A stretch of DNA of 64,000 nt from Sulfurovum sp. TSL6 (GTDB lineage Bacteria > Campylobacterota > Campylobacteria > Campylobacterales > Sulfurovaceae), in the NCBI RefSeq assembly GCF_019972115.1, contig NZ_BPFJ01000001.1, forward strand, positions 434,001-498,000, given 5' to 3'. Positions 21,016-54,829 of the stretch are shown in pieces. Position numbers and translations under genes: made by a program. Position 1 is the first letter of the stretch. Each line of letters starts with the position of its first letter. Below the pieces are notes generated by a model. It did no database searches. It was not told the origin of the DNA and saw only the letters and a list, made by a program, of their open reading frames with translations.

Positions 21016-21397
21016 AGCACTCATCATCGTAGCGCATGGCAGCCGAAAAAACTCTTCCAATGAAGAGGTCAAGGCACTAGGAGAAAAAGTAAAATCCATA
21101 CAGGATAAACACTACACATTAGTGATGACATCATTTTTAGAATTTGTAACTCCTTCTTTGGAAGAGAGTATTCTCTCCTGTATCGATAAGGGTGTCAGTG
21201 AGATAGTCATCTTACCTTACTTTCTGGCTTCTGGTAACCATGTCACCCGAGACATCCCTGAAGTGGTTCAAAAGATACAGGCATCACACCCGCAAGTAAA
21301 AATAACACTCAAAGAACATTTAGGCAGTGCATCAGGTATGGTGAAACTTCTAAGTGATATGGCTGCAGTTCAAACAAAAAACTCTAAAACTCAATAA
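21002..21397 (+). CDS. CbiX/SirB-like chelatase domain protein
   Basis: The 131-residue protein matches the short, single-domain CbiX family: ALIIVAHGSRKNSSNEEV with the metal-binding H12, and VILPYFLASGNHVTRDIPEVV. Such proteins insert cobalt, iron or nickel into sirohydrochlorin-type tetrapyrroles. It overlaps the lipocalin gene by 14 bp. The second ATG (21005) is an equally possible start. The C-terminal 20 residues are variable and end before an AT-rich palindrome. Confidence 0.88.
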   Translation: MMADRALIIVAHGSRKNSSNEEVKALGEKVKSIQDKHYTLVMTSFLEFVTPSLEESILSCIDKGVSEIVILPYFLASGNHVTRDIPEVVQKIQASHPQVKITLKEHLGSASGMVKLLSDMAAVQTKNSKTQ

Positions 21398-21436
21398 ATA
21401 CACTACAAGTTTTAGAGGCAATAAATAATAGGATAG

Positions 21437-21471
21437 AAAACCTTATAAAATTATATATTTTATAAGGTTTT
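21437..21471. repeat. CCTTATAA/TTATAAGG palindrome, copy P1
   Basis: Perfect 14-bp arms AAAACCTTATAAAA and TTTTATAAGGTTTT around a 7-nt loop. It sits 40 bp after the CbiX gene and could act as a bidirectional terminator. It belongs to a family of related palindromes in this window. Confidence 0.85.
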
Positions 21472-21487
21472 GGAAACAAAACATTTC

Positions 21488-21551
21488 TGATATACTCTTA
21501 AGACTGAAATATCGCAATAAAAGGACATTATGTTCCTTGGATAAATAGTTA
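21488..21551 (+). repeat. 64-bp leader repeat, copy 1
   Basis: This differs from the copy at 54375-54438 at only 4 of 64 positions. It contains AAGGACATT, then a four-codon reading frame starting ATGTTC and ending TAA, and finishes with AATAGTTA. Identity to the other copy stops at GTTA, just before the unrelated downstream genes. Confidence 0.9.
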
Positions 21552-21572
21552 TGAGTATCAAGGAATGAAACA

Positions 21573-21953
21573 TTGAAAAGCAAGATTACAATAATCTCTC
21601 TTAGTTTAATTATAGTTATGTATTTAGCTTTTAAGGGTTTTATACATATACTGAGTAGTTCAAACTATAAACTGAACTCAATCAAGTCAGCATCAAATAC
21701 AAAATTTATAGTTAGTGAATTTGAATCACTTAGTGAAGCAGGTCATGCGCCCTATGGAAAACACTTAACCTTATCTAAAAAACCTATAGATACTCCAAGT
21801 GAAGGACATATTATATATGCTGGCTATTGCCTCAACCTTGAATATTCATGGCTATCTAATAATAGAATTCAAGTTAACTGCAGAACTGACAAGCCTGAAA
21901 ACCCTGTTTCATTATCAAAAACTGCATATGGTATTGTTGTTGAATACAATTAA
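21573..21953 (+). CDS. small orphan protein with N-terminal membrane anchor, cassette-like
   Basis: The 126-residue protein begins with a hydrophobic helix (TIISLSLIIVMYLAFKGFIHIL) and continues with a likely periplasmic strand-rich domain containing two cysteines (GYCLNLEYSWLSNN, QVNCRTD), possibly a disulfide. I do not recognise the family. The start is TTG behind CAAGGA, since the nearby ATG is followed by a stop. The gene is preceded by the repeated 64-bp leader, and its ends carry matching GTTATGA cores, as in an integron cassette. Base composition is more AT-rich than the housekeeping genes. Confidence 0.7.
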   Translation: MKSKITIISLSLIIVMYLAFKGFIHILSSSNYKLNSIKSASNTKFIVSEFESLSEAGHAPYGKHLTLSKKPIDTPSEGHIIYAGYCLNLEYSWLSNNRIQVNCRTDKPENPVSLSKTAYGIVVEYN

Positions 21954-21954
21954 A

Positions 21955-22004
21955 CTCATAACAAGATGTTCATACAGGATGCAAAATTTAACTAAGCGTT
22001 ATGA
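21955..22004 (+). other. possible minimal attC-like site
   Basis: CTCATAAC (21955-21962) is the exact reverse complement of GTTATGAG at the upstream end of the gene (21548-21555). GTTATGA recurs at 21998-22004. This is the arrangement of R'' and R' cores in an inserted cassette. The interior shows no convincing L-box pairing and the site is shorter than usual, so this is tentative. Confidence 0.4.
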
Positions 22005-22037
22005 ATCACTTACAAATAAATTTTATTAAGGAGTGTC

Positions 22038-22874
22038 ATGAAACTAACCTCATTTATTAATACTCTCTTTTTCCCTGTTTTATTATTGGCAACACCAAAT
22101 GAGACAAACTATCTAAAACTAAAAACAACTTGGGACAACAATATCACATATCTCAAGTTTATGTTGAAATCTCCAATGATTGGAGAAGAACGATATAATT
22201 ATCAAAAAGGTATGGAGGAAAATTATATTAGCCATATTTCAGTAATAGATATAAAAAAAGATAAAAAAATATTAGATGTTTCTACAAGTTCTTATATGCG
22301 TGAAAATCTAATTATTAAATTTAAATATATTGATATTGAGAGATCTGAAAATATAAAATTTATTATTACTGACAACAAAGGTTCTCAAAATAATTATAAT
22401 GCAAATACCAACAAAGGCAAGAGCCAATATTTGACTCCATCTAAAGCCACAGCATTATATGACAAAGTAGAAACAATTAATTACAGAAAACAAAATCCTC
22501 AAATTTTTAAATCTAAAAATATTGATGAAGCGATAAAAGCACTTTATGGTACCGTAAAGGAACCTATTGAAAACAAAATAAAGCTTTCTTTAAAAGAACA
22601 TAATTATTGTCATGAACTAATTCCTATTCATATTTCGTCCGATGTTGACTTGGAATCTTTTGCAATTTTTAATAATCAAAACAAATATCCTACAATAGCG
22701 GTATTTTCTCTTGATAAAGTGAAAATGATAGATCTTAAATTTAATGTGCGTATGTTTAAAACATGTACGGACTATTCTATTATTATCGTAGGAAAAGACA
22801 GTATGGGAAATATTTATATAACAAGTGAGAAAGCTCGTGTGGCATGTGCAGATGGTTGTGGTGGAGGCGGATAA
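22038..22874 (+). CDS. exported SoxZ-SoxY-like fusion protein
   Basis: The 278-residue protein has a signal peptide (about 1-19). Residues 25-110 follow the SoxZ pattern: a KSPMIGEERYNYQKG segment in place of the usual HPMETGLR, then ISHISV, a YMRENLIIKFKY strand and FIITDNKG. Residues 165-278 follow SoxY: NIDEAIKALYG, RMFKTCTDYSIIIVG, and a C-terminal ADGCGGGG with C274 where SoxY has its substrate-carrying Cys in GGCGG. SoxYZ carries sulfur intermediates in the periplasm during thiosulfate oxidation. Here both parts lie in one chain in the order Z-Y, with divergent sequence and no other sox genes nearby. AAGGAG precedes the ATG. The function as a sulfur carrier is inferred. Confidence 0.78.
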   Translation: MKLTSFINTLFFPVLLLATPNETNYLKLKTTWDNNITYLKFMLKSPMIGEERYNYQKGMEENYISHISVIDIKKDKKILDVSTSSYMRENLIIKFKYIDIERSENIKFIITDNKGSQNNYNANTNKGKSQYLTPSKATALYDKVETINYRKQNPQIFKSKNIDEAIKALYGTVKEPIENKIKLSLKEHNYCHELIPIHISSDVDLESFAIFNNQNKYPTIAVFSLDKVKMIDLKFNVRMFKTCTDYSIIIVGKDSMGNIYITSEKARVACADGCGGGG

Positions 22875-22955
22875 ATGAAAGACTTTACCTAATTAATAAA
22901 TAAGATATTATCGCAAATATGAGGATCAATACAGACTTTGTATTTCCTAAAAACT

Positions 22956-23027
22956 AAAACCTTATAATCTAACATAGAATATGACGGGTAAGTAAACCTC
23001 ATAAAGTTATATATTTTATAAGGTTTT
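22956..23027. repeat. compound palindrome, copy P2
   Basis: A left half AAAACCTTATAATCTAAC (22956-22973) is followed after 20 bp by AAACCTCATAAAG...TTTTATAAGGTTTT (22994-23027). The outer arms pair as well as the inner ones. The left half with its TTCCTAAAAAC lead-in recurs at 29620 and 54908. Confidence 0.75.
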
Positions 23028-23136
23028 CTCTTCACACTAGTTTCACACTTCTATTTTATACTTCATCTGAATTTGGATAAAGCGTTTCTGATTTGAATAT
23101 CAGATAAGCATTACAAAAAAATTAAAAGGATTTATA

Positions 23137-23280
23137 ATGAAAAAATTAACAGCAATCTTACTTCTAACAATCGGTTTAGCTTCAAGCGCTATGGCACATC
23201 ACCCTGCACCAGTAGATCAAGCTGGCTCAGGAATACCAGATAATTCTGGACACTGGGATGCATTTCTTGGTGGTCTCTAG
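23137..23280 (+). CDS. 47-residue exported peptide
   Basis: This short gene has an AAAAGGA Shine-Dalgarno and encodes a classic signal peptide (MKKLTAILLLTIGLASSAMA), with cleavage expected before H21. The 27-residue mature part starts HHPAPVD, is rich in Gly, Pro and Asp, and ends WDAFLGGL. It has no cysteine. A strong terminator follows 35 bp after the stop, so it forms a complete monocistronic unit. I do not recognise it. It could be a secreted or periplasmic peptide, possibly metal-binding through the paired histidines, but this is a guess. Confidence 0.7.
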   Translation: MKKLTAILLLTIGLASSAMAHHPAPVDQAGSGIPDNSGHWDAFLGGL

Positions 23281-23315
23281 TTCATTATATTAATATATTT
23301 TGGATAAAAAAAAGC

Positions 23316-23350
23316 AAGGCGTATCCTAAATTTGGGATATGCCTTTTTTT
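23316..23350 (+). terminator. Rho-independent terminator
   Basis: A stem AAGGCGTATCC / GGGATATGCCTT (one wobble or mismatch) with a short loop is followed by a run of seven T. The A tract upstream would let it work in both directions. It ends the 47-residue peptide unit. Confidence 0.85.
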
Positions 23351-23400
23351 ATTTCTTCGATCAAAACACCAATTTTTAAACTAATTTTATTTGTTGCACC

Positions 23401-23435
23401 AAAACCTCATAAAGTTATATATTTTATAAGGTTTT
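23401..23435. repeat. CCTCATAA/TTATAAGG palindrome, copy P3
   Basis: AAAACCTCATAAAG then TTATATA then TTTTATAAGGTTTT. It is identical to the right part of P2 over 34 bp. It lies between the peptide gene's terminator and the end of the patatin gene. Confidence 0.85.
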
Positions 23436-23517
23436 ATATAAGGAAAAGTAGAAGATGTTTTTTATTTGCCTTTTAATATCTGTAAATAACCTTTTCATCT
23501 CAAAATCAATACTTTAA

Positions 23518-24687
23518 TTAATATTTGAGTGTTGTATTCCAAGCCGATTTTGAACGTCCCTTTTCATATCCTACTTGATAAAGTGCATTCATATATTTTT
23601 TGTCAATAACATATTCCAAAGGCACATCAAAACTCTTTGGTACATTGGTTATATATACATTAAATCCATCACGTTTAGCTAATGAGGTGATATTGACTAA
23701 GTCACCCACCCCATGGTATTTTGTTAAGGTATAAAATGATCGCTTTGCAATATCACTTAGGGAAAGAGAAACAGGTTTATACACAGGGTCTATCTTTGTA
23801 TTTCGTATCAGCCACATATTTTTTTGAGGATGTATATTTAACAAACGCTGCAGCTTCTGAATATCCATATCACGAGGATATACAAATATCTGTCTGGTAA
23901 CGCCACCGTCTACATGTACTTCCTCGTGTCTCTTTCCATTAATCACCACATCTATGAGTACCGGTGGGAAGGCTCCAGGGATGGAAGATGAGGCTAATAT
24001 GATATCTCTGATAAGTTTTGGGGCATCTGAACGACCACTTAAAGCAATTTTAGTAATATCCCAGACGACGGGGCGCTGTGCATCAAGATTGGTAGTACCG
24101 ATCTGTAGTATACGCCCCTTTCTTGCCTCCTTTGCCAACTCCGCTATGAAAGCATCATTTATCTCTTCAGTAAGGATCTTTTTAAGTGGTGCCGTATCCC
24201 CTAGTGAGGCACCAAAAAGTGCCTCCATCGGTGAGAATAGGACGATGTTCTTTTGAGAGGACTCTGTATAGAGCCTTTCTATCACTCTATCATACTTTGG
24301 CCCCAAGAATGCAAAAGGAGCCATCAGCGCACCGGTCGAAATACCTGTCACCACAGTGAACTGAGGTCTGTCTCCACGTTCACTCCAACCCTTCAAGAAA
24401 CCCGCACCATATGCTCCATCCTCAGCACCGCCTGAAAGGGCAAGTATATCTATTCTTTTACGAAAACTTTTATTGGCTTCAAGTCTTTTTATATTCGATC
24501 TTGTATAGGTATACTTTGCTGTTTCATCACCCCAGTAACGAATGTTTGTATACCCCATAATCGTAGCTTTAGTATAATTTTCTGCAGCAGGTGGAGGGAA
24601 TGAGCGTTGCTTAGTAGAGCAGGCAGAGAAAAACAACATGAATGGTAAAATATTTACCAGTATCAATGAAATCTTTTTCTTATGCAT
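23518..24687 (-). CDS. patatin-like phospholipase lipoprotein
   Basis: The 389-residue protein has a lipoprotein signal peptide with lipobox FSAC (C23). The patatin catalytic dyad is visible: nucleophile S117 in GISTG and D260 in HVDGGVTRQ. The oxyanion loop is the slightly unusual SGGAEDGAYGAGFL. Patatins hydrolyse acyl lipids. I moved the start from an upstream in-frame Met to the ATG at 24687, which has GGAAGGAG and gives a proper lipoprotein signal. It follows the RbbA-type export operon with a 32-bp gap and is probably co-transcribed. Confidence 0.92.
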   Translation of the reverse strand: MHKKKISLILVNILPFMLFFSACSTKQRSFPPPAAENYTKATIMGYTNIRYWGDETAKYTYTRSNIKRLEANKSFRKRIDILALSGGAEDGAYGAGFLKGWSERGDRPQFTVVTGISTGALMAPFAFLGPKYDRVIERLYTESSQKNIVLFSPMEALFGASLGDTAPLKKILTEEINDAFIAELAKEARKGRILQIGTTNLDAQRPVVWDITKIALSGRSDAPKLIRDIILASSSIPGAFPPVLIDVVINGKRHEEVHVDGGVTRQIFVYPRDMDIQKLQRLLNIHPQKNMWLIRNTKIDPVYKPVSLSLSDIAKRSFYTLTKYHGVGDLVNITSLAKRDGFNVYITNVPKSFDVPLEYVIDKKYMNALYQVGYEKGRSKSAWNTTLKY

Positions 24688-24719
24688 GTACACTCCTTCC
24701 ATAGTATCACTTAATCCCC

Positions 24720-25838
24720 TTAATTTAAACTCTTCTTGAAGATTGAAAGAGAAAATACAAAGAAAAACATCCCTATGACAAAAATCCAAAACATATCAAC
24801 CCATACAACATCCAGCCCAGCTCCTCGATAGAGAATTGCCTGAGACATACTCACAAAGTGGCTTGTAGGCATCAGCAACATAAAATTTTGAAGCAGTTGC
24901 GGCATACTCTCAAAAGGAGTGATAGCTCCAGAGAGTATATGAAGCGGCAAAATGGTGATAATGATAATAAGCCCCAGCTGCGGCATAGATTTAGCGACAG
25001 TCCCCATGAATATCCCCATTGATGTTGTTGAAAAAAGCATTAAAAATGCCCCGAATAAAAAAAGCCCTTCAGATCCTGCTATTGGAACATCCAGCACGCC
25101 TTTGATCACAAACTGCAAAGATAGTGCTGCGGCCAATAAGACAATAACTCCCATGGACCAAACTTTAGAGAGCATGATCTCAGCAGCATTCAATGGCATG
25201 ACCATCAGGTGCTCAAGTGTTCCATGTTCTCGCTCACGAATAAGTGCGGCACCTGAGAGAATGATCGAAAGAAGGGTTATCTGCTCAATAAACTCCATCA
25301 CACTTCCAAACCATGTGCTTTCAAGCGCCGGATTAAACTTCATACGGGCAACAAGTTCTACCGGAACCGAAATGTCTGCTGAAGTACCTTGTAAAAAAGT
25401 GCGGACTTCATCGTTGATCATCTGCTGTATGTACCCCGCACCGATACCTGCCTGTGACATACGCGTAGCATCGATATTGAGTTGGATGGTAGGTTGTCTT
25501 CCTTGCAGTACTTCCTTCTCAAATGAAGGTGGAATGGTAAGGACAAACGTGTATACCCCCTTATCCATTCCATAGTCAATCTTATCTGCCTCTATCAGAT
25601 CAGGAGGAAGGAAACGTGGTTTGTAAAATGCTCCAATAATCCGTGCTGAGAGTACCGATTGATCTTCATCATTGAAAGCAACAGGAACTTTGTTAAATTC
25701 CGAAGAGGTTGCGGTTGCACCAAGGTAGATAGCAAAAGAGAATGTATAGACTATCAGAATGGTCAACATTTTATCATGCCATACACTTTGAAGTTCTTTG
25801 ATTCCAAGACGATAGATGTTCAGAAGACTTCTTTTCAT
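24720..25838 (-). CDS. ABC-2 type permease, YhhJ-like
   Basis: The 372-residue inner membrane protein has one N-terminal helix, a periplasmic domain of about 150 residues and a C-terminal ABC-2 core of five or six helices (IREREHGTLEHLMVMPL, then a segment with LSGAITPFESMP). This is the build of YhhJ, YbhR and YbhS in multidrug and hydrophobic-compound export. It follows the RbbA-like gene directly, with AGGAGG before its ATG, giving the gene order known for yhiI-rbbA-yhhJ in E. coli. Confidence 0.9.
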   Translation of the reverse strand: MKRSLLNIYRLGIKELQSVWHDKMLTILIVYTFSFAIYLGATATSSEFNKVPVAFNDEDQSVLSARIIGAFYKPRFLPPDLIEADKIDYGMDKGVYTFVLTIPPSFEKEVLQGRQPTIQLNIDATRMSQAGIGAGYIQQMINDEVRTFLQGTSADISVPVELVARMKFNPALESTWFGSVMEFIEQITLLSIILSGAALIREREHGTLEHLMVMPLNAAEIMLSKVWSMGVIVLLAAALSLQFVIKGVLDVPIAGSEGLFLFGAFLMLFSTTSMGIFMGTVAKSMPQLGLIIIITILPLHILSGAITPFESMPQLLQNFMLLMPTSHFVSMSQAILYRGAGLDVVWVDMFWIFVIGMFFFVFSLSIFKKSLN

Positions 25839-28565
25839 TCAAGCCTCCTGTTTTTTCAGTGCTGTAATACTGAGTAGTGTAATGACAACAACAATAGCTG
25901 CAAGCGCAGAAAAATCATAACTAAGATCTCTAAACTCAAGCGCTTTGCTGAAAACACCTCGGCTTATATTGATAAAATAGGTTGCCGGGAAGATATTGCC
26001 CATCACTGCTCCAGCACCTTCCAAGGAGCTGACCGGTTCATTAAGCCCTGAAAAACTGACTGTCGGCAATAAAGTCAAGATAGCCGTTGCAGTCAAAGCT
26101 GCAATCTGTGTTTTCGCAAATGAGGACATCAGAAGTCCCAACCCTGTAGTTGCTGTAACAAAAAGCACTGCACCAAGACTCAATGTCCATAAACTTCCCT
26201 TGAGCGGTACCCCGAAAAGAGTAGTAGCAAAAACAACCAACCCCACATATCCGATCATACTGATAACGATATAGGGCAACTGTTTCCCCAGTAAAAACTC
26301 TAGCCGTGTTACTGGTGTAGCATAGAAGTTTGTAATAGACCCAAGCTCTTTTTCCCTCACGACACTCAATGCCATCAATATAGAAGGAATAAACACTAAG
26401 AGCAGAGGGATGACTGCCGGTACCATCGCATAGATACTTTTAAAATCCTGATTATAGCGATAGCGCATCTCGATAATGACTGCTGAGAGTACTGGAGTAG
26501 CCACTGACTGCTCTTTTGTCTGCTGGATCAGGTAATCATAGTGCATACCTCTGACATACCCTCGAATCGTCTCGGCCCGAAACGGCATAGTTCCGTCAAT
26601 CCATACCCCGATCTCAACAGATTTGCCTCGTTTTAGCTCCCGTCCGAATCCAGGCGGGATTTCAAGTGCCAGAGAGATTTCTCCTTGACGCATTCTTTGA
26701 TCAAGCTCATAGGATGATCTGATCTCAGTTTGTTCTTCAAAGTAACGTGATCCTGAAAGATTCTGAATATAAGAGCGACTCTGGGGTGTTTGGTCCCTGT
26801 CCAGTACAGCAAAATGCAGGTCCTCTACATCCATATTGATCCCATATCCAAGAGTGAACATTAACAAAATGGTTCCAAACAGAGCAAAAACAAGTCTGAC
26901 CGGATCCCGGATCAGCTCCAAAGATTCACGGTAAGTGTAGCCCAAAAGGCGCAACCAACTAAAAAAACGGTTCTGAGGTTTTGACTGAGGGAATGATGCT
27001 TGCAAGTGGGTACTTTTTTGTAATGCCTTGCTCTCTTCCGCCTCTTCAAGGTAGTCAATAAAAGCATCTTCAAGATTTTCCTTATTCCTTGCACGAATTA
27101 ACGCTTCAGGGGTATCACTGGCCAGTACGCGCCCTTGATGCATCAATGATATCCGGTCACATCGTTCCCCTTCATTCATAAAGTGTGTTGAGACAAAGAT
27201 CGTTACGCCTTGATTGCGTGAAAGTCCAATGAGCAATTCCCAAAAACGGTCACGCGAGACCGGATCTACACCGGAAGTGGGCTCATCAAGAATCAGTATT
27301 TGAGGGTTATGGACAACAGCTACTGCCAAAGAGAGACGTTGTCTTATACCAAGAGGAAGGTCCATAGTATGAGTATCAGCATAGTGTTCCAAATCAAAAT
27401 GATCTATCATCTCTTCTATACGAGGTTCAACTTCAGTTTGCGGAAGGTGAAAAAGCTGTGCATGCAGTTTCAGATTCTGTCTGACCGTCAGTTCTGAGTA
27501 AAGTGAAAATCCTTGGGTCATGTACCCAACCCGATGACGTGTAGAGAGATCTTGAACATCAATGGGCTGACCAAAAAGCCATGCTTTACCTTCTGATGGA
27601 TTGAGCAGTCCAGTAAGCATCTTCATGGTTGTCGTTTTACCACAGCCGTTCGAGCCGAGAAATCCAAAGATCTCTCCACGCTCTATACTAAAGCTCACAT
27701 CATCTACAGCAGTAAAATCACCAAAGCGGATCGTAAGTCCCTTTGCGATGATAGCTTCTTCTCCATGCTCATTTATGATATCGGTCCGTGGCGGGACGAC
27801 AAGAGTTTTATATCCACGGCGCTTTGACTCAGGCAATAAAGCAATAAAGGCATCATCGAGATTATCGGTACTGGTCTTTTTATACAACTCATCCGGCGTA
27901 CCTGTAGCCAGAAGTTTTGCATCATCCATCGCAACTATCCAATCGAAGCGCTCCGCCTCTTCCATATATGCTGAGGCAATAATAACACTCATTCCTTCCC
28001 TACGCTTTCTCATACGCTCCACCAGTTCCCAAAATTGGCGGCGTGAAAGCGGATCTACACCTGTTGTCGGTTCATCCAGAATCAGTAGATCCGGGTCATG
28101 AATAAGCGCACAGCAAAGTCCGAGTTTCTGCTTCATACCGCCTGATAACTTACCTGCCGGACGATCACGAAAAGGTGCAAGCCCTGTACTTTCAAGTAAC
28201 TCATTTATTCTAGCTTGACGCTCACCCCTTCCTTGTCCAAAAAGACGACCGAAAAAATCGACATTTTCTTCCACTGAAAGAGACATATAAAGGTTTTTGC
28301 CAAGCCCCTGAGGCATATAAGCAATTCGAGGGCCTATTTTGCTCCGATGTTTTTTAAATCTCATATCTCCATCAAGAACTTTGACTGATCCCTCTTGTAT
28401 TTTTCTCACACCTGAAATGAGTGCCAATATGGTCGATTTTCCCACCCCATCAGGCCCAATAAGCCCAACCATACAACCATTGGGAATATCTAAACTCACA
28501 TTATCCACCGCCACTGTATTCCCATAACGATGACTTAAATTAAGCAGAGATGCTATCGGAGTCAT
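25839..28565 (-). CDS. RbbA-like fused ABC transporter (two ATPase domains plus permease)
   Basis: The 908-residue protein has two nucleotide-binding domains followed by an ABC-2 permease, the same architecture and length as E. coli RbbA (YhiH). Walker A motifs are GPDGVGKST (K43) and GSNGCGKTT near residue 305. Signature motifs are LSGGMKQK and the weaker LPLGIRQRL, and Walker B segments are [13 protein letters not shown] and [13 protein letters not shown]. The permease part starts near 540. It probably exports a hydrophobic compound with the neighbouring HlyD-like and YhhJ-like proteins. RbbA itself also binds ribosomes, which cannot be judged here. It overlaps the HlyD-like gene by 4 bp. 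Confidence 0.92.
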
Positions 28566-29563
28566 GGTCTTGAACCGTTTCTATCTCTCATACGTAGTGA
28601 ATCTGGCCAAGGCATCGTTTCGTTCAATCGTACATAAGCAACGCCCGGTAATCCGGATTTAATCTTATGTAAATGTCCCAGCAAGAGTTCAGGAGCTATT
28701 TTCACCTTGACACGGAACATCAATTTTTCTCTTTCGGTAGCTGTTTCGATCTCTTTAGGTGTAAACTGTGCTTCAGGTGAAATGAAACTTACTTTTGACG
28801 GTATAGGAGTATTCGGTAGCGCATCCAAAACAATACGTGCATCCGAACCGATATCGATAAGGCCAACCTGAGAGGTAGGCAGGAAAATAGTTATATATGT
28901 ATCGATAAGATCAAGCACCACTAAAGCATTGCCTCCGCTTCCTATCATTTCCCCTTCTTCTACCAGACGGTAAAGCACTCTTCCCTTTACAGGAGAATAG
29001 AGTTTACTCTCCTGTAGTTGCACTTCTATACTCTCAGCCTGTGCTTTTGCTGCACTTATCGCTGCTTCATAGCTTGTCACTTGTGCTTTGGCTGCCATTA
29101 GCGCTGCTTCTGCCCTTTGGTATTCTGTTTCATCATCTTCAAACATAACCAAAGCGATACTCTTACTTTCAAATAGTGCTTTACTTCTTAAAAAATCATT
29201 CTCTTGATGTTTGAGATCTATCTCTTTTTGAGAGACTACAGCTTGAGCATACTTTTTATTTTGTCTGGCCTGTTCAACCCCTGCAAGTGCGACCTTATAT
29301 CGTGCTTCAAGCTCTCTGGTATCAAGCTTGGCCAACAACTGACCCTTTTCAACCATATCTCCTTCTTTGACATAAATGTCTGTCAATCTCCCTCCATGCT
29401 TAGCAGTTATATTAACTTGTGTAGTTTCCAGTCTACCATTACCAGAGGCAATACCGTCATATTGGTCAGACTTATCCCAATATTTTGTCAACATAAGAAC
29501 AGAAATGATCATACCTATAGTCACTACAACAAATAAAATTTTTTTCAACAGATTTATTTTCAC
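28562..29563 (-). CDS. HlyD/YhiI-type membrane fusion protein
   Basis: The 333-residue protein has an N-terminal membrane anchor ([17 protein letters not shown]), a biotinyl-lipoyl-like segment ([27 protein letters not shown]), a long alpha-hairpin rich in Ala, Glu and Gln (about 75-200) and a beta-barrel domain. It would bridge the ABC transporter to an outer membrane channel, which is not encoded nearby. The start is a GTG behind GAGGAGAAGAA. It is the first gene of the operon. The 358 bp upstream (29564-29921) hold two palindromes and the promoter of the divergent flavin reductase gene, but no gene. Confidence 0.92.
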
Positions 29564-29633
29564 TTCTTCTCCTCTGGCATCTTTTTAAATAGAATACACT
29601 TAATTATATACTATCTTAATTCCCTAAAAAATG

Positions 29634-29667
29634 AAAACCTTATAATCTAACATATTTTATAACGTTT
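29634..29667. repeat. CCTTATAA-type palindrome, copy P4
   Basis: AAAACCTTATAATCTAAC with a degenerate right arm TTTTATAACGTTT. The lead-in TTCCCTAAAAA and left arm match those at 22946 and 54909. A GC-richer stretch with CGTTTCTCG follows, unlike the surroundings. Confidence 0.65.
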
Positions 29668-29714
29668 CTCGCCGTAGCGACGTTTTCGAGGCATAAATTC
29701 TTCATCTTAAATAG

Positions 29715-29759
29715 AAAACCTTATAAAATGTTCCAATATGGATGGTATTATAAGGTTTT
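29715..29759. repeat. CCTTATAA/TTATAAGG palindrome, copy P5
   Basis: Perfect 12-bp arms AAAACCTTATAA / TTATAAGGTTTT with a 21-nt loop, followed by more T. It could serve as a terminator. The left arm plus AATGTTC also occurs at 54921. Confidence 0.75.
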
Positions 29760-29853
29760 TTATTATGTCTTTAGTCTCTAAAATATGTAACGTATTTTAT
29801 TGGATTTTAGAGTTTTTATTGGAGTAGACAATAGTAGAGTAGATATCTAGCAT

Positions 29854-54170: not shown

Positions 54171-54204
54171 AAACCTTATAAAATTATATAATTTTATAAG
54201 GTTT
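54171..54204. repeat. perfect 34-bp palindrome, copy P6
   Basis: AAACCTTATAAAATTAT is followed at once by its exact reverse complement, 17 bp each side with no loop. It starts 11 bp after the pseudo-kinase stop. The flank TTTTGCAAACAGGACATTT resembles that of P1 (TTTTGGAAACAAAACATTT). Confidence 0.88.
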
Positions 54205-54374
54205 TGCAAACAGGACATTTTGTCCGATATTGCCAGGTATCAACAAATAACAGAATACTTTGTCCAAATAATTGCTATTTACAGCCTAAAAAAACATAAG
54301 TAATTATTATAATCTTATGAATAACTAGAAAAATATACAAATTCTACCTATTTTCATTAATATCAAGACATATT

Positions 54375-54438
54375 TGATATACTCTTAATACTGAAATATC
54401 GTAATAAAAGGACATTATGTTCTTTGAATAAATAGTTA
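54375..54438 (+). repeat. 64-bp leader repeat, copy 2
   Basis: This matches the copy at 21488-21551 at 60 of 64 positions, including AAGGACATT, the four-codon frame starting ATGTTC, and the final AATAGTTA. After GTTA the two loci are unrelated. It possibly carries a promoter (TTGATA, 17 bp, TATCGT). Confidence 0.9.
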
Positions 54439-54451
54439 GCCAAGGAATTAT

Positions 54452-54829
54452 ATGAACGAAGAACCCGATACTATTAGAGCATTAATCCAACACGAAAACG
54501 AGATGACAAATCATCGCATGAACTGGTTCCTGATTTTGCAGGGGTTCATGTTTGCTGGTATTGCCTTCGCATGGGATAAGAGCACGGCGCTTTGTGTTGT
54601 CTTCTCTATTGTAGGCATTCTCAGTTCGATTTCAGTTGGAATTCTCTTACGATATGGAATTCAGGCGATTAGAGACCTAGATCGGAAGTCTCGAGACACA
54701 ACAATCGGGAAAGGTAGCGAGGAAATAGCCCCGTTTATGCATTTCTTGCTTCCTTGGCACTTCTTGCCATTTACGATGATTGTGGCATGGACGGCGATGA
54801 TTATCATTAAGTTGGCGAAGATTGTCTAA
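54452..54829 (+). CDS. integron-cassette-like two-helix membrane protein
   Basis: The 125-residue protein has a charged start (MNEEPDTIRALIQHENEMTNHRMNWFLILQGFMF), two or three membrane helices and a C-terminal helix near IVAWTAMIIIKLAKIV. Very similar small membrane proteins are common in integron gene cassettes, from memory of that literature. Codon use (cgg, gcg, ggc) is clearly GC-richer than in neighbours, pointing to recent transfer. The TAA stop lies inside the R'' box of an attC-like site, a hallmark of cassettes. AAGGA precedes the ATG. Function is unknown. Confidence 0.82.
   Translation: MNEEPDTIRALIQHENEMTNHRMNWFLILQGFMFAGIAFAWDKSTALCVVFSIVGILSSISVGILLRYGIQAIRDLDRKSRDTTIGKGSEEIAPFMHFLLPWHFLPFTMIVAWTAMIIIKLAKIV

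What the first reader, a model, noticed from the sequence alone, without database searches (positions are those of the whole stretch)
22038..22874. Possible SoxZ-SoxY fusion in one exported chain, outside any sox operon
SoxZ-like strands (SPMIGEERY, YMRENLIIKFKY, ITDNKG) are followed by a SoxY-like part (IDEAIKALYG ... RMFKTCTDYSIIIVG) and a C-terminal GCGGGG. The order Z-Y, the altered HPMETGLR segment and an extra nearby Cys (C270) make it unlike standard SoxYZ. From memory, the known quinoprotein-associated SoxYZ fusions have the opposite order and no terminal Cys. It lies in an AT-rich accessory patch, so it may be a mobile sulfur carrier with a special partner.
Basis: partly seen in the sequence, partly recalled or inferred. 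Interest (0 to 1): 0.72.

Follow-up and report, generated by a model that had tools for sequence, protein, structure and literature searches.

The report
Mobile single-chain SoxZ-SoxY sulfur carrier
A Sulfurovum bacterium carries an exported-looking protein in which the two halves of the Sox sulfur carrier are joined in the opposite order to known fusions, and the gene belongs to a genus-specific family that moves around as swappable cargo and as a domain of larger proteins.

Summary
The 278-aa ORF at 22038-22874 has a SoxZ half (residues 33-120) followed by a SoxY half (167-274) and ends in DGCGGGG. Family profiles, PDB-wide profile hits and an AlphaFold model support two Sox-type beta domains. 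The genome (genus Sulfurovum) has complete sox operons on another contig; no sox gene adjoins this one. All 46 separate soxY/soxZ pairs I scored, and the known quinoprotein-type fusions, have Y before Z. Z-Y fusions were found only in this genus, as several diverged stand-alone types and as a C-terminal module on a propeller-ankyrin protein whose homologues in other genera lack it. Nine of ten fusion types keep a Cys near the C-terminus, but only two keep a Gly-rich arm. The extra Cys is real; the altered HPMETGLR segment is already present in the resident SoxZ2. Nine of 11 stand-alone copies lie close to 35-bp palindromes on both sides, and in two near-identical genomes different fusions occupy one palindrome-bounded slot. 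Most likely it is a mobile, single-chain SoxYZ-type carrier using the host's Sox enzymes. Sulfur carriage is inferred, not shown; repurposing of the module is the main rival.

The parts
22038..22874 (+). SoxZ-SoxY fusion gene, 278 aa, stop included
22028..22033 (+). AAGGAG ribosome-binding site
   Evidence: sequence
22038..22100 (+). hydrophobic N-terminus (Sec-type signal or anchor; no twin-arginine, no lipobox)
   Evidence: sequence; inference
22134..22397 (+). SoxZ-like domain, residues 33-120
22536..22859 (+). SoxY-like domain, residues 167-274
22845..22871 (+). C-terminal arm CADGCGGGG, Cys270 and Cys274
21437..21471 (.). 35-bp palindrome A (14-bp arms, 7-bp spacer)
21491..21519 (+). conserved promoter-like block TATACTCTTAAGACTGAAATATCGCAATA
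21548..21554 (+). core GTTATGA, 5' border of the 450-bp cassette
21549..21998 (+). 450-bp cassette with orphan 126-aa ORF (21573-21953), absent in G077 at a clean G^TT junction
21998..22004 (+). second core GTTATGA; homology to G077 starts here
22956..22976 (+). half of palindrome type B
22993..23027 (.). palindrome A
23137..23280 (+). 47-aa exported-looking ORF in unit 22997-23435, 98.4% identical to a unit in G026
23401..23435 (.). palindrome A
29634..29668 (.). palindrome B at the far end of the patatin-ABC-HlyD block
21364..29830 (.). 8.47-kb stretch missing in G026 and G077, where its flanks are contiguous

Best explanation
A mobile, single-chain SoxYZ-type carrier. The exported chain folds as a SoxZ domain joined to a SoxY domain, so the heterodimer is made as one molecule. 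SoxY comes last, so the arm with Cys274 stays free at the chain end, as in ordinary SoxY. The host's own Sox enzymes (SoxXA, SoxB, SoxCD, encoded elsewhere in the same genome) would load Cys274 with a sulfur group and release it. Cys270, and perhaps Cys191 or Cys243, could pair with it and tune this. The module descends from the Campylobacterota SoxY2Z2 lineage; as all separate pairs are Y-Z, a rearrangement such as a tandem duplication is needed. It spreads as cargo of palindrome-bounded units. Shown: domains, order, homology, genus restriction, synteny breaks at palindromes. Inferred: export, sulfur loading, use of host enzymes, role of the extra Cys, mechanism of movement.
For: Both domains by profile and model. 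Terminal DGCGGGG close to the GGC[GE]G end seen in nearly all separate SoxY listed. A Cys within 16 residues of the end in 9 of 10 fusion types, though chains hold only 0-4 Cys. Two-domain architecture kept in all types, dN/dS 0.16-0.37. Complete sox operons in the same genome. SoxZ tree puts the Z-Y fusions with the SoxZ2 side, away from SoxZ1 and the Y-Z fusion (97/96 support). Mobility: clean 450-bp presence/absence at G^TT; 8.47-kb stretch absent in two relatives; G077 and G026 flanks 99.8-99.9% identical up to the palindromes while the slot holds a 255-aa fusion in one and a 317-aa fusion in the other; 9 of 11 stand-alone copies within about 1.8 kb of a palindrome on both sides, 10 of 11 within about 125 bp on one side.
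Against: Far below the NCBIfam equivalog cut-offs. Most relatives have lost the Gly-rich arm, and one lineage has no Cys in the module at all, so the module can be kept without carrying sulfur. Three Cys beyond the single arm Cys. No sox neighbour. The window/G077 pair differs by only 20 nucleotides, so its own dN/dS is weak evidence.
Confidence: 0.52

Rival explanations
1. Repurposed SoxZY module. The fused pair has left the Sox cycle and works as an exported binding, thiol-sensing or scaffold domain; the C-terminal Cys anchors it or forms a disulfide.
For: Gly-rich arm kept in only 2 of 10 types, one lineage without Cys; module also appended to an LVIVD-propeller/ankyrin protein whose homologues in Sulfurospirillum and Sulfurimonadaceae stop at 716-718 aa without it; no sox neighbours; extra Cys; strong divergence (21-32% identity to the window protein).
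Against: The window member itself keeps DGCGGGG and both domains; terminal Cys retained in 9 of 10 types.
Confidence: 0.36
2. Neutral cargo: a decaying soxYZ relic hitch-hiking in a mobile patch.
For: AT-rich, divergent, accessory, sub-threshold for equivalog models.
Against: Intact frames in the copies read, dN/dS 0.16-0.37 across the family, architecture and ribosome-binding site kept.
Confidence: 0.08
3. A Y-Z quinoprotein-associated SoxYZ fusion (TIGR04557) reached by circular permutation.
For: Same two domains in one chain.
Against: The fusion's own protein gave no TIGR04557 match at E up to 10; the SoxZ tree places the Y-Z example with SoxZ1; no quinoprotein neighbour.
Confidence: 0.03

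Closest known systems
SoxYZ carrier of the Sox pathway (PF13501 + PF08770; solved as 2ox5, 2oxg, 2oxh, 4uwq)
   Same: Both beta domains; C-terminal Gly-Cys-Gly arm
   Different: One chain instead of two, Z before Y, no twin-arginine leader, four Cys, not in a sox operon, below equivalog cut-offs
Campylobacterota SoxY2/SoxZ2 of the soxCD cluster (L009)
   Same: Closest by sequence: DFRxxxPxxW...SIKALYG and YDVSTS motifs; SoxZ2 lacks HPMETG too
   Different: Separate genes in order Y-Z; ends GGCEG
Quinoprotein-associated SoxYZ fusion (TIGR04557); SoxYZ-S2 and SoxYZ-S4 clades of PMC11237559
   Same: SoxY and SoxZ fused, outside the main sox operon
   Different: Order Y-Z, arm Cys internal in L150; linked to PQQ alcohol, formate or methanol dehydrogenases (PMC11237559)
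Integron gene cassettes / CALIN arrays (reported for Sulfurovum NBC37-1, PMC10295459)
   Same: 450-bp unit gained or lost at G^TT with 7-bp core repeat; promoter-like block in front
   Different: No integron integrase over cut-off in this genome or in G077/G026/G072/G074; 35-bp palindromes instead of recognisable attC at most borders

Membership tests
SoxZ (PF08770 / TIGR04490) | Profile match over curated cut-off | tested here: inconclusive
   Pfam 25.2 bits vs 25 for the N half alone, 23 in the full chain; TIGR04490 29.6 vs 76
SoxZ (PF08770 / TIGR04490) | SoxZ beta-sandwich fold | tested here: inconclusive
   N half aligns to SoxZ 1v8h at Z 5.5, but unrelated C2 domains score alike
SoxY (PF13501 / TIGR04488) | Pfam SoxY match over cut-off | tested here: met
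   29.5 bits vs 28.4, residues 167-274
SoxY (PF13501 / TIGR04488) | Equivalog 'true SoxY' cut-off | tested here: not met
   40.7 bits vs 125
SoxY (PF13501 / TIGR04488) | SoxY fold | tested here: met
   Z 9.7, 2.8 A over 109 residues to 2nnc_A, well above unrelated rows
SoxY (PF13501 / TIGR04488) | C-terminal Gly-rich arm with a Cys | tested here: met
   ends CADGCGGGG; a variant of GGCGG
SoxYZ carrier, functional | Cys bears sulfur conjugates made by SoxXA and cleaved by SoxB | not testable with these tools
   needs protein chemistry
SoxYZ carrier, functional | Encoded in a sox operon | tested here: not met
   no sox gene beside it; sox operons on another contig
TIGR04557 fused SoxYZ | Y-Z order and model match | tested here: not met
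   order Z-Y; no match at E up to 10
Integron gene cassette | Integron integrase in the genome | tested here: not met
   no TIGR02249 hit over cut-off in G000; it may act from elsewhere or have been lost
Integron gene cassette | Recombination border at G^TT with R''/R' arms | tested here: inconclusive
   one clean border for the neighbouring 450-bp unit; short arms alone are not rarer than chance; the fusion has no recognisable attC at its 3' end

The most novel reading that the evidence does not exclude
Sulfurovum carries a fast-diversifying family of single-chain sulfur carriers spread as interchangeable cargo of a new palindrome-bounded cassette system, each type with a different C-terminal thiol arm suited to a different sulfur compound or partner.
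Probability: 0.2. Interest if true: 0.78.

Novelty: new variant of a known kind. Interest (0 to 1): 0.55.

Why it matters
The Sox carrier is usually described as a two-chain protein tied to its operon. A reversed single-chain form keeps the reactive arm at the free end, which Y-Z fusions cannot do, and offers a natural one-gene test of how SoxZ helps SoxY. Finding it as exchangeable cargo, and as a bolt-on domain of a propeller-ankyrin protein, suggests that sulfur-carrier modules are traded and re-tooled in these sulfur oxidizers. The palindrome-bounded slot shared by two near-identical genomes is a testable mobile system in its own right.

Tried and rejected
Single-protein scans of genome contigs and viral contigs for the window fusion and of viral contigs for P0004, and tblastn in plasmids and phages: no relatives. 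Alignment A1 was too diverse for the search for related loci. PHROGs: no match for the fusion. Rfam in the locus: only chance-level hits. Palindromes as mere terminators: they fold well as RNA (-9 to -13 kcal/mol) and may terminate transcription too, but near-identical genomes break synteny exactly at them, so termination alone does not explain them. The small tyrosine recombinase as their enzyme: possible, but close copies occur only in G026 and G077 among the genomes rich in sites, not in G000. A scan for 8-nt attC-like arms near the integrases and in the window found only chance numbers. Permutation from TIGR04557: no support. The SoxY tree could not resolve one or several origins (12 fusions, 4 changes, long branches).

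Full report
What is there. The ORF at 22038-22874 on the + strand codes 278 aa with a ribosome-binding site and a hydrophobic N-terminus. Pfam finds SoxZ at residues 33-120 and SoxY at 167-274; NCBIfam's SoxZ_true and SoxY_true_GGCGG match significantly but well under their equivalog cut-offs. A profile of the family hits solved SoxZ and SoxY chains in its two halves. The AlphaFold model, made from the window protein and four relatives found by the search for related loci, has pLDDT 69.8 and pTM 0.72; the C half is clearly SoxY (Z 9.7) and the N half is compatible with SoxZ (Z 5.5, not better than unrelated folds).

Host and setting. The window is G000:C1:434001-498000 of a 2.25-Mb genome whose genus matches named Sulfurovum contigs: G061:C12, G067:C28 and G008:C69 have the contig lengths of JALWTA010000012.1, WTAE01000059.1 and JALTVI010000090.1. 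Contig C3 carries two sox loci: one with soxX, soxY1, soxZ1, soxA and soxB genes (L011) and one with soxC- and soxD-like genes plus soxY2, soxZ2 and a further soxY (L009) (SoxY and SoxZ by profile, the other names from sequence and knowledge of the families). So enzymes that could act on a carrier are present, but no sox gene adjoins the fusion.

Reverse order. In the loci fetched here all 46 adjacent separate pairs read soxY then soxZ. The model of the known fusions, TIGR04557, also reads Y then Z, and a real example from the same order (L150) has Y at residues 18-159, Z at 171-259 and its only Cys internal. The published SoxYZ-S2 and SoxYZ-S4 fusions sit with PQQ alcohol, formate and methanol dehydrogenases (PMC11237559). 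The window protein did not match TIGR04557. The Z-Y order leaves the arm at the free C-terminus. Since separate pairs are Y-Z, a Z-Y fusion cannot arise by loss of one stop codon; a rearrangement such as a tandem duplication is needed (inference).

A genus-specific family. Searches of 150 relatives and of 399 genomes of the order gave full-length Z-Y fusions only in this genus; other genera gave separate SoxY and SoxZ. Stand-alone types of 255, 257, 274, 278, 283, 288 and 317 aa share 21-32% identity with the window protein; the 317-aa type is a weak member with no Pfam hit. A further type is the C-terminal part of 1005-1020-aa proteins with LVIVD-propeller and ankyrin repeats. Homologues of that protein in Sulfurospirillum and a Sulfurimonadaceae MAG stop at 716-718 aa without SoxZY, so the module was added in Sulfurovum or lost elsewhere. 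In the SoxZ tree the fusions lie with SoxZ2, apart from SoxZ1 and the Y-Z fusion (97/96); whether they have one origin is not resolved.

The arm. Nearly all separate SoxY listed end in GGCG, GGCGG or GGCEG. Among ten fusion types, nine keep a Cys within the last 16 residues, two keep a Gly-rich arm (window/G077, and GCGRDGE in G067), and one lineage has no Cys in the module. Four types have a second Cys 87-94 residues before the end. The window protein has Cys191, 243, 270 and 274. dN/dS is 0.30 for window vs G077 (only 20 changes), 0.25-0.37 for the 257- and 317-aa types and 0.16-0.19 for the propeller proteins: purifying selection. HPMETGLR is altered already in SoxZ2 (KHDMLTYDQ), so that point is not specific.

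Mobility. A 35-bp palindrome recurs in 27 of the 100 genomes searched, all of this genus, and its reversed control never does. In the window it stands at 21437, 22993 and 23401, with a type B copy at 29634. Ten of 11 stand-alone fusion copies have such a site within about 125 bp on at least one side, nine within about 1.8 kb on both; the one without any lies on a 5.9-kb contig; the propeller versions have none nearby. Four comparisons show movement. First, G077 and G026 are 99.84% and 99.90% identical on the two sides of a slot, up to the palindromes, yet the slot holds a 255-aa fusion in one and a 317-aa fusion in the other, with a small tyrosine recombinase in both. Second, the window fusion (W 21998-22960) is 95.9% identical to G077:C5 in other surroundings; the homology begins exactly at G^TTATGA, where the window has an extra 450-bp unit with an orphan 126-aa ORF. 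Third, the unit with the 47-aa ORF, 22997-23435, is 98.4% identical to one in G026, with borders at palindromes. Fourth, W 21364-29830 (8.47 kb) is missing in G026 and G077, where its flanks are contiguous; it also holds a patatin-ABC-HlyD operon that in G028 lies elsewhere, with homology running from W 23373 to 29657, close to the palindromes. Insertion here or loss there cannot be told apart for this stretch.

Is it an integron? The G^TT border, the core repeat and a conserved promoter-like block ahead of it recall integron cassettes, and Sulfurovum NBC37-1 has reported CALINs (PMC10295459). But G000, G077, G026, G072 and G074 have no integron integrase over the curated cut-off, though 20 of 78 genus members do, and the fusion itself has no clear attC. 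I leave the mechanism open.

Mechanism proposed. A single-chain SoxYZ-type carrier that uses the host's Sox enzymes, with Cys274 as the acceptor, spread as cargo. Steps shown: domains, order, family, selection, cargo exchange. Steps inferred: export, sulfur loading, partners, role of Cys270. The strongest rival is a repurposed module, because most relatives have lost the Gly-rich arm. I give 0.52 to the carrier and 0.36 to repurposing.

Limits. Searches covered Campylobacterota and the named collections only; metagenomes could not be scanned. No experiment bears on function.

Noticed in passing
21437-21471, 22993-23027, 23401-23435, 29634-29668, 54171-54204: Genus-restricted 35-bp palindromes (two types) that bound exchangeable gene units; synteny between 99.8% identical genomes breaks exactly at them (L047/L049).
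   Followed up: partly
54171-54440, ORF 54452-54829: A second copy of the palindrome plus promoter-like block ahead of a 125-aa membrane-protein-like ORF.
   Followed up: no
L047:10498-11088(-), L049:4507-5097(-): Short tyrosine recombinase (about 190 aa, Phage_integrase) inside the exchange slot; its start overlaps a site-like sequence. Close copies only in G077 and G026.
   Followed up: partly
L010:1790-4807; L140-L143; L145, L146: LVIVD-propeller/ankyrin protein that has gained (or elsewhere lost) a SoxZY C-terminal module.
   Followed up: partly
21573-21953: Orphan 126-aa ORF in a 450-bp unit, found in 1 of 78 genus genomes.
   Followed up: yes
L009:4506-4973: Lone third SoxY with a changed end (SCMGSGE), upstream of a soxC-like gene and without its own soxZ.
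   Followed up: no
23518-29563: Patatin-ABC-ABC-HlyD operon carried in the same variable stretch; homologous operon in G028 at another locus.
   Followed up: partly
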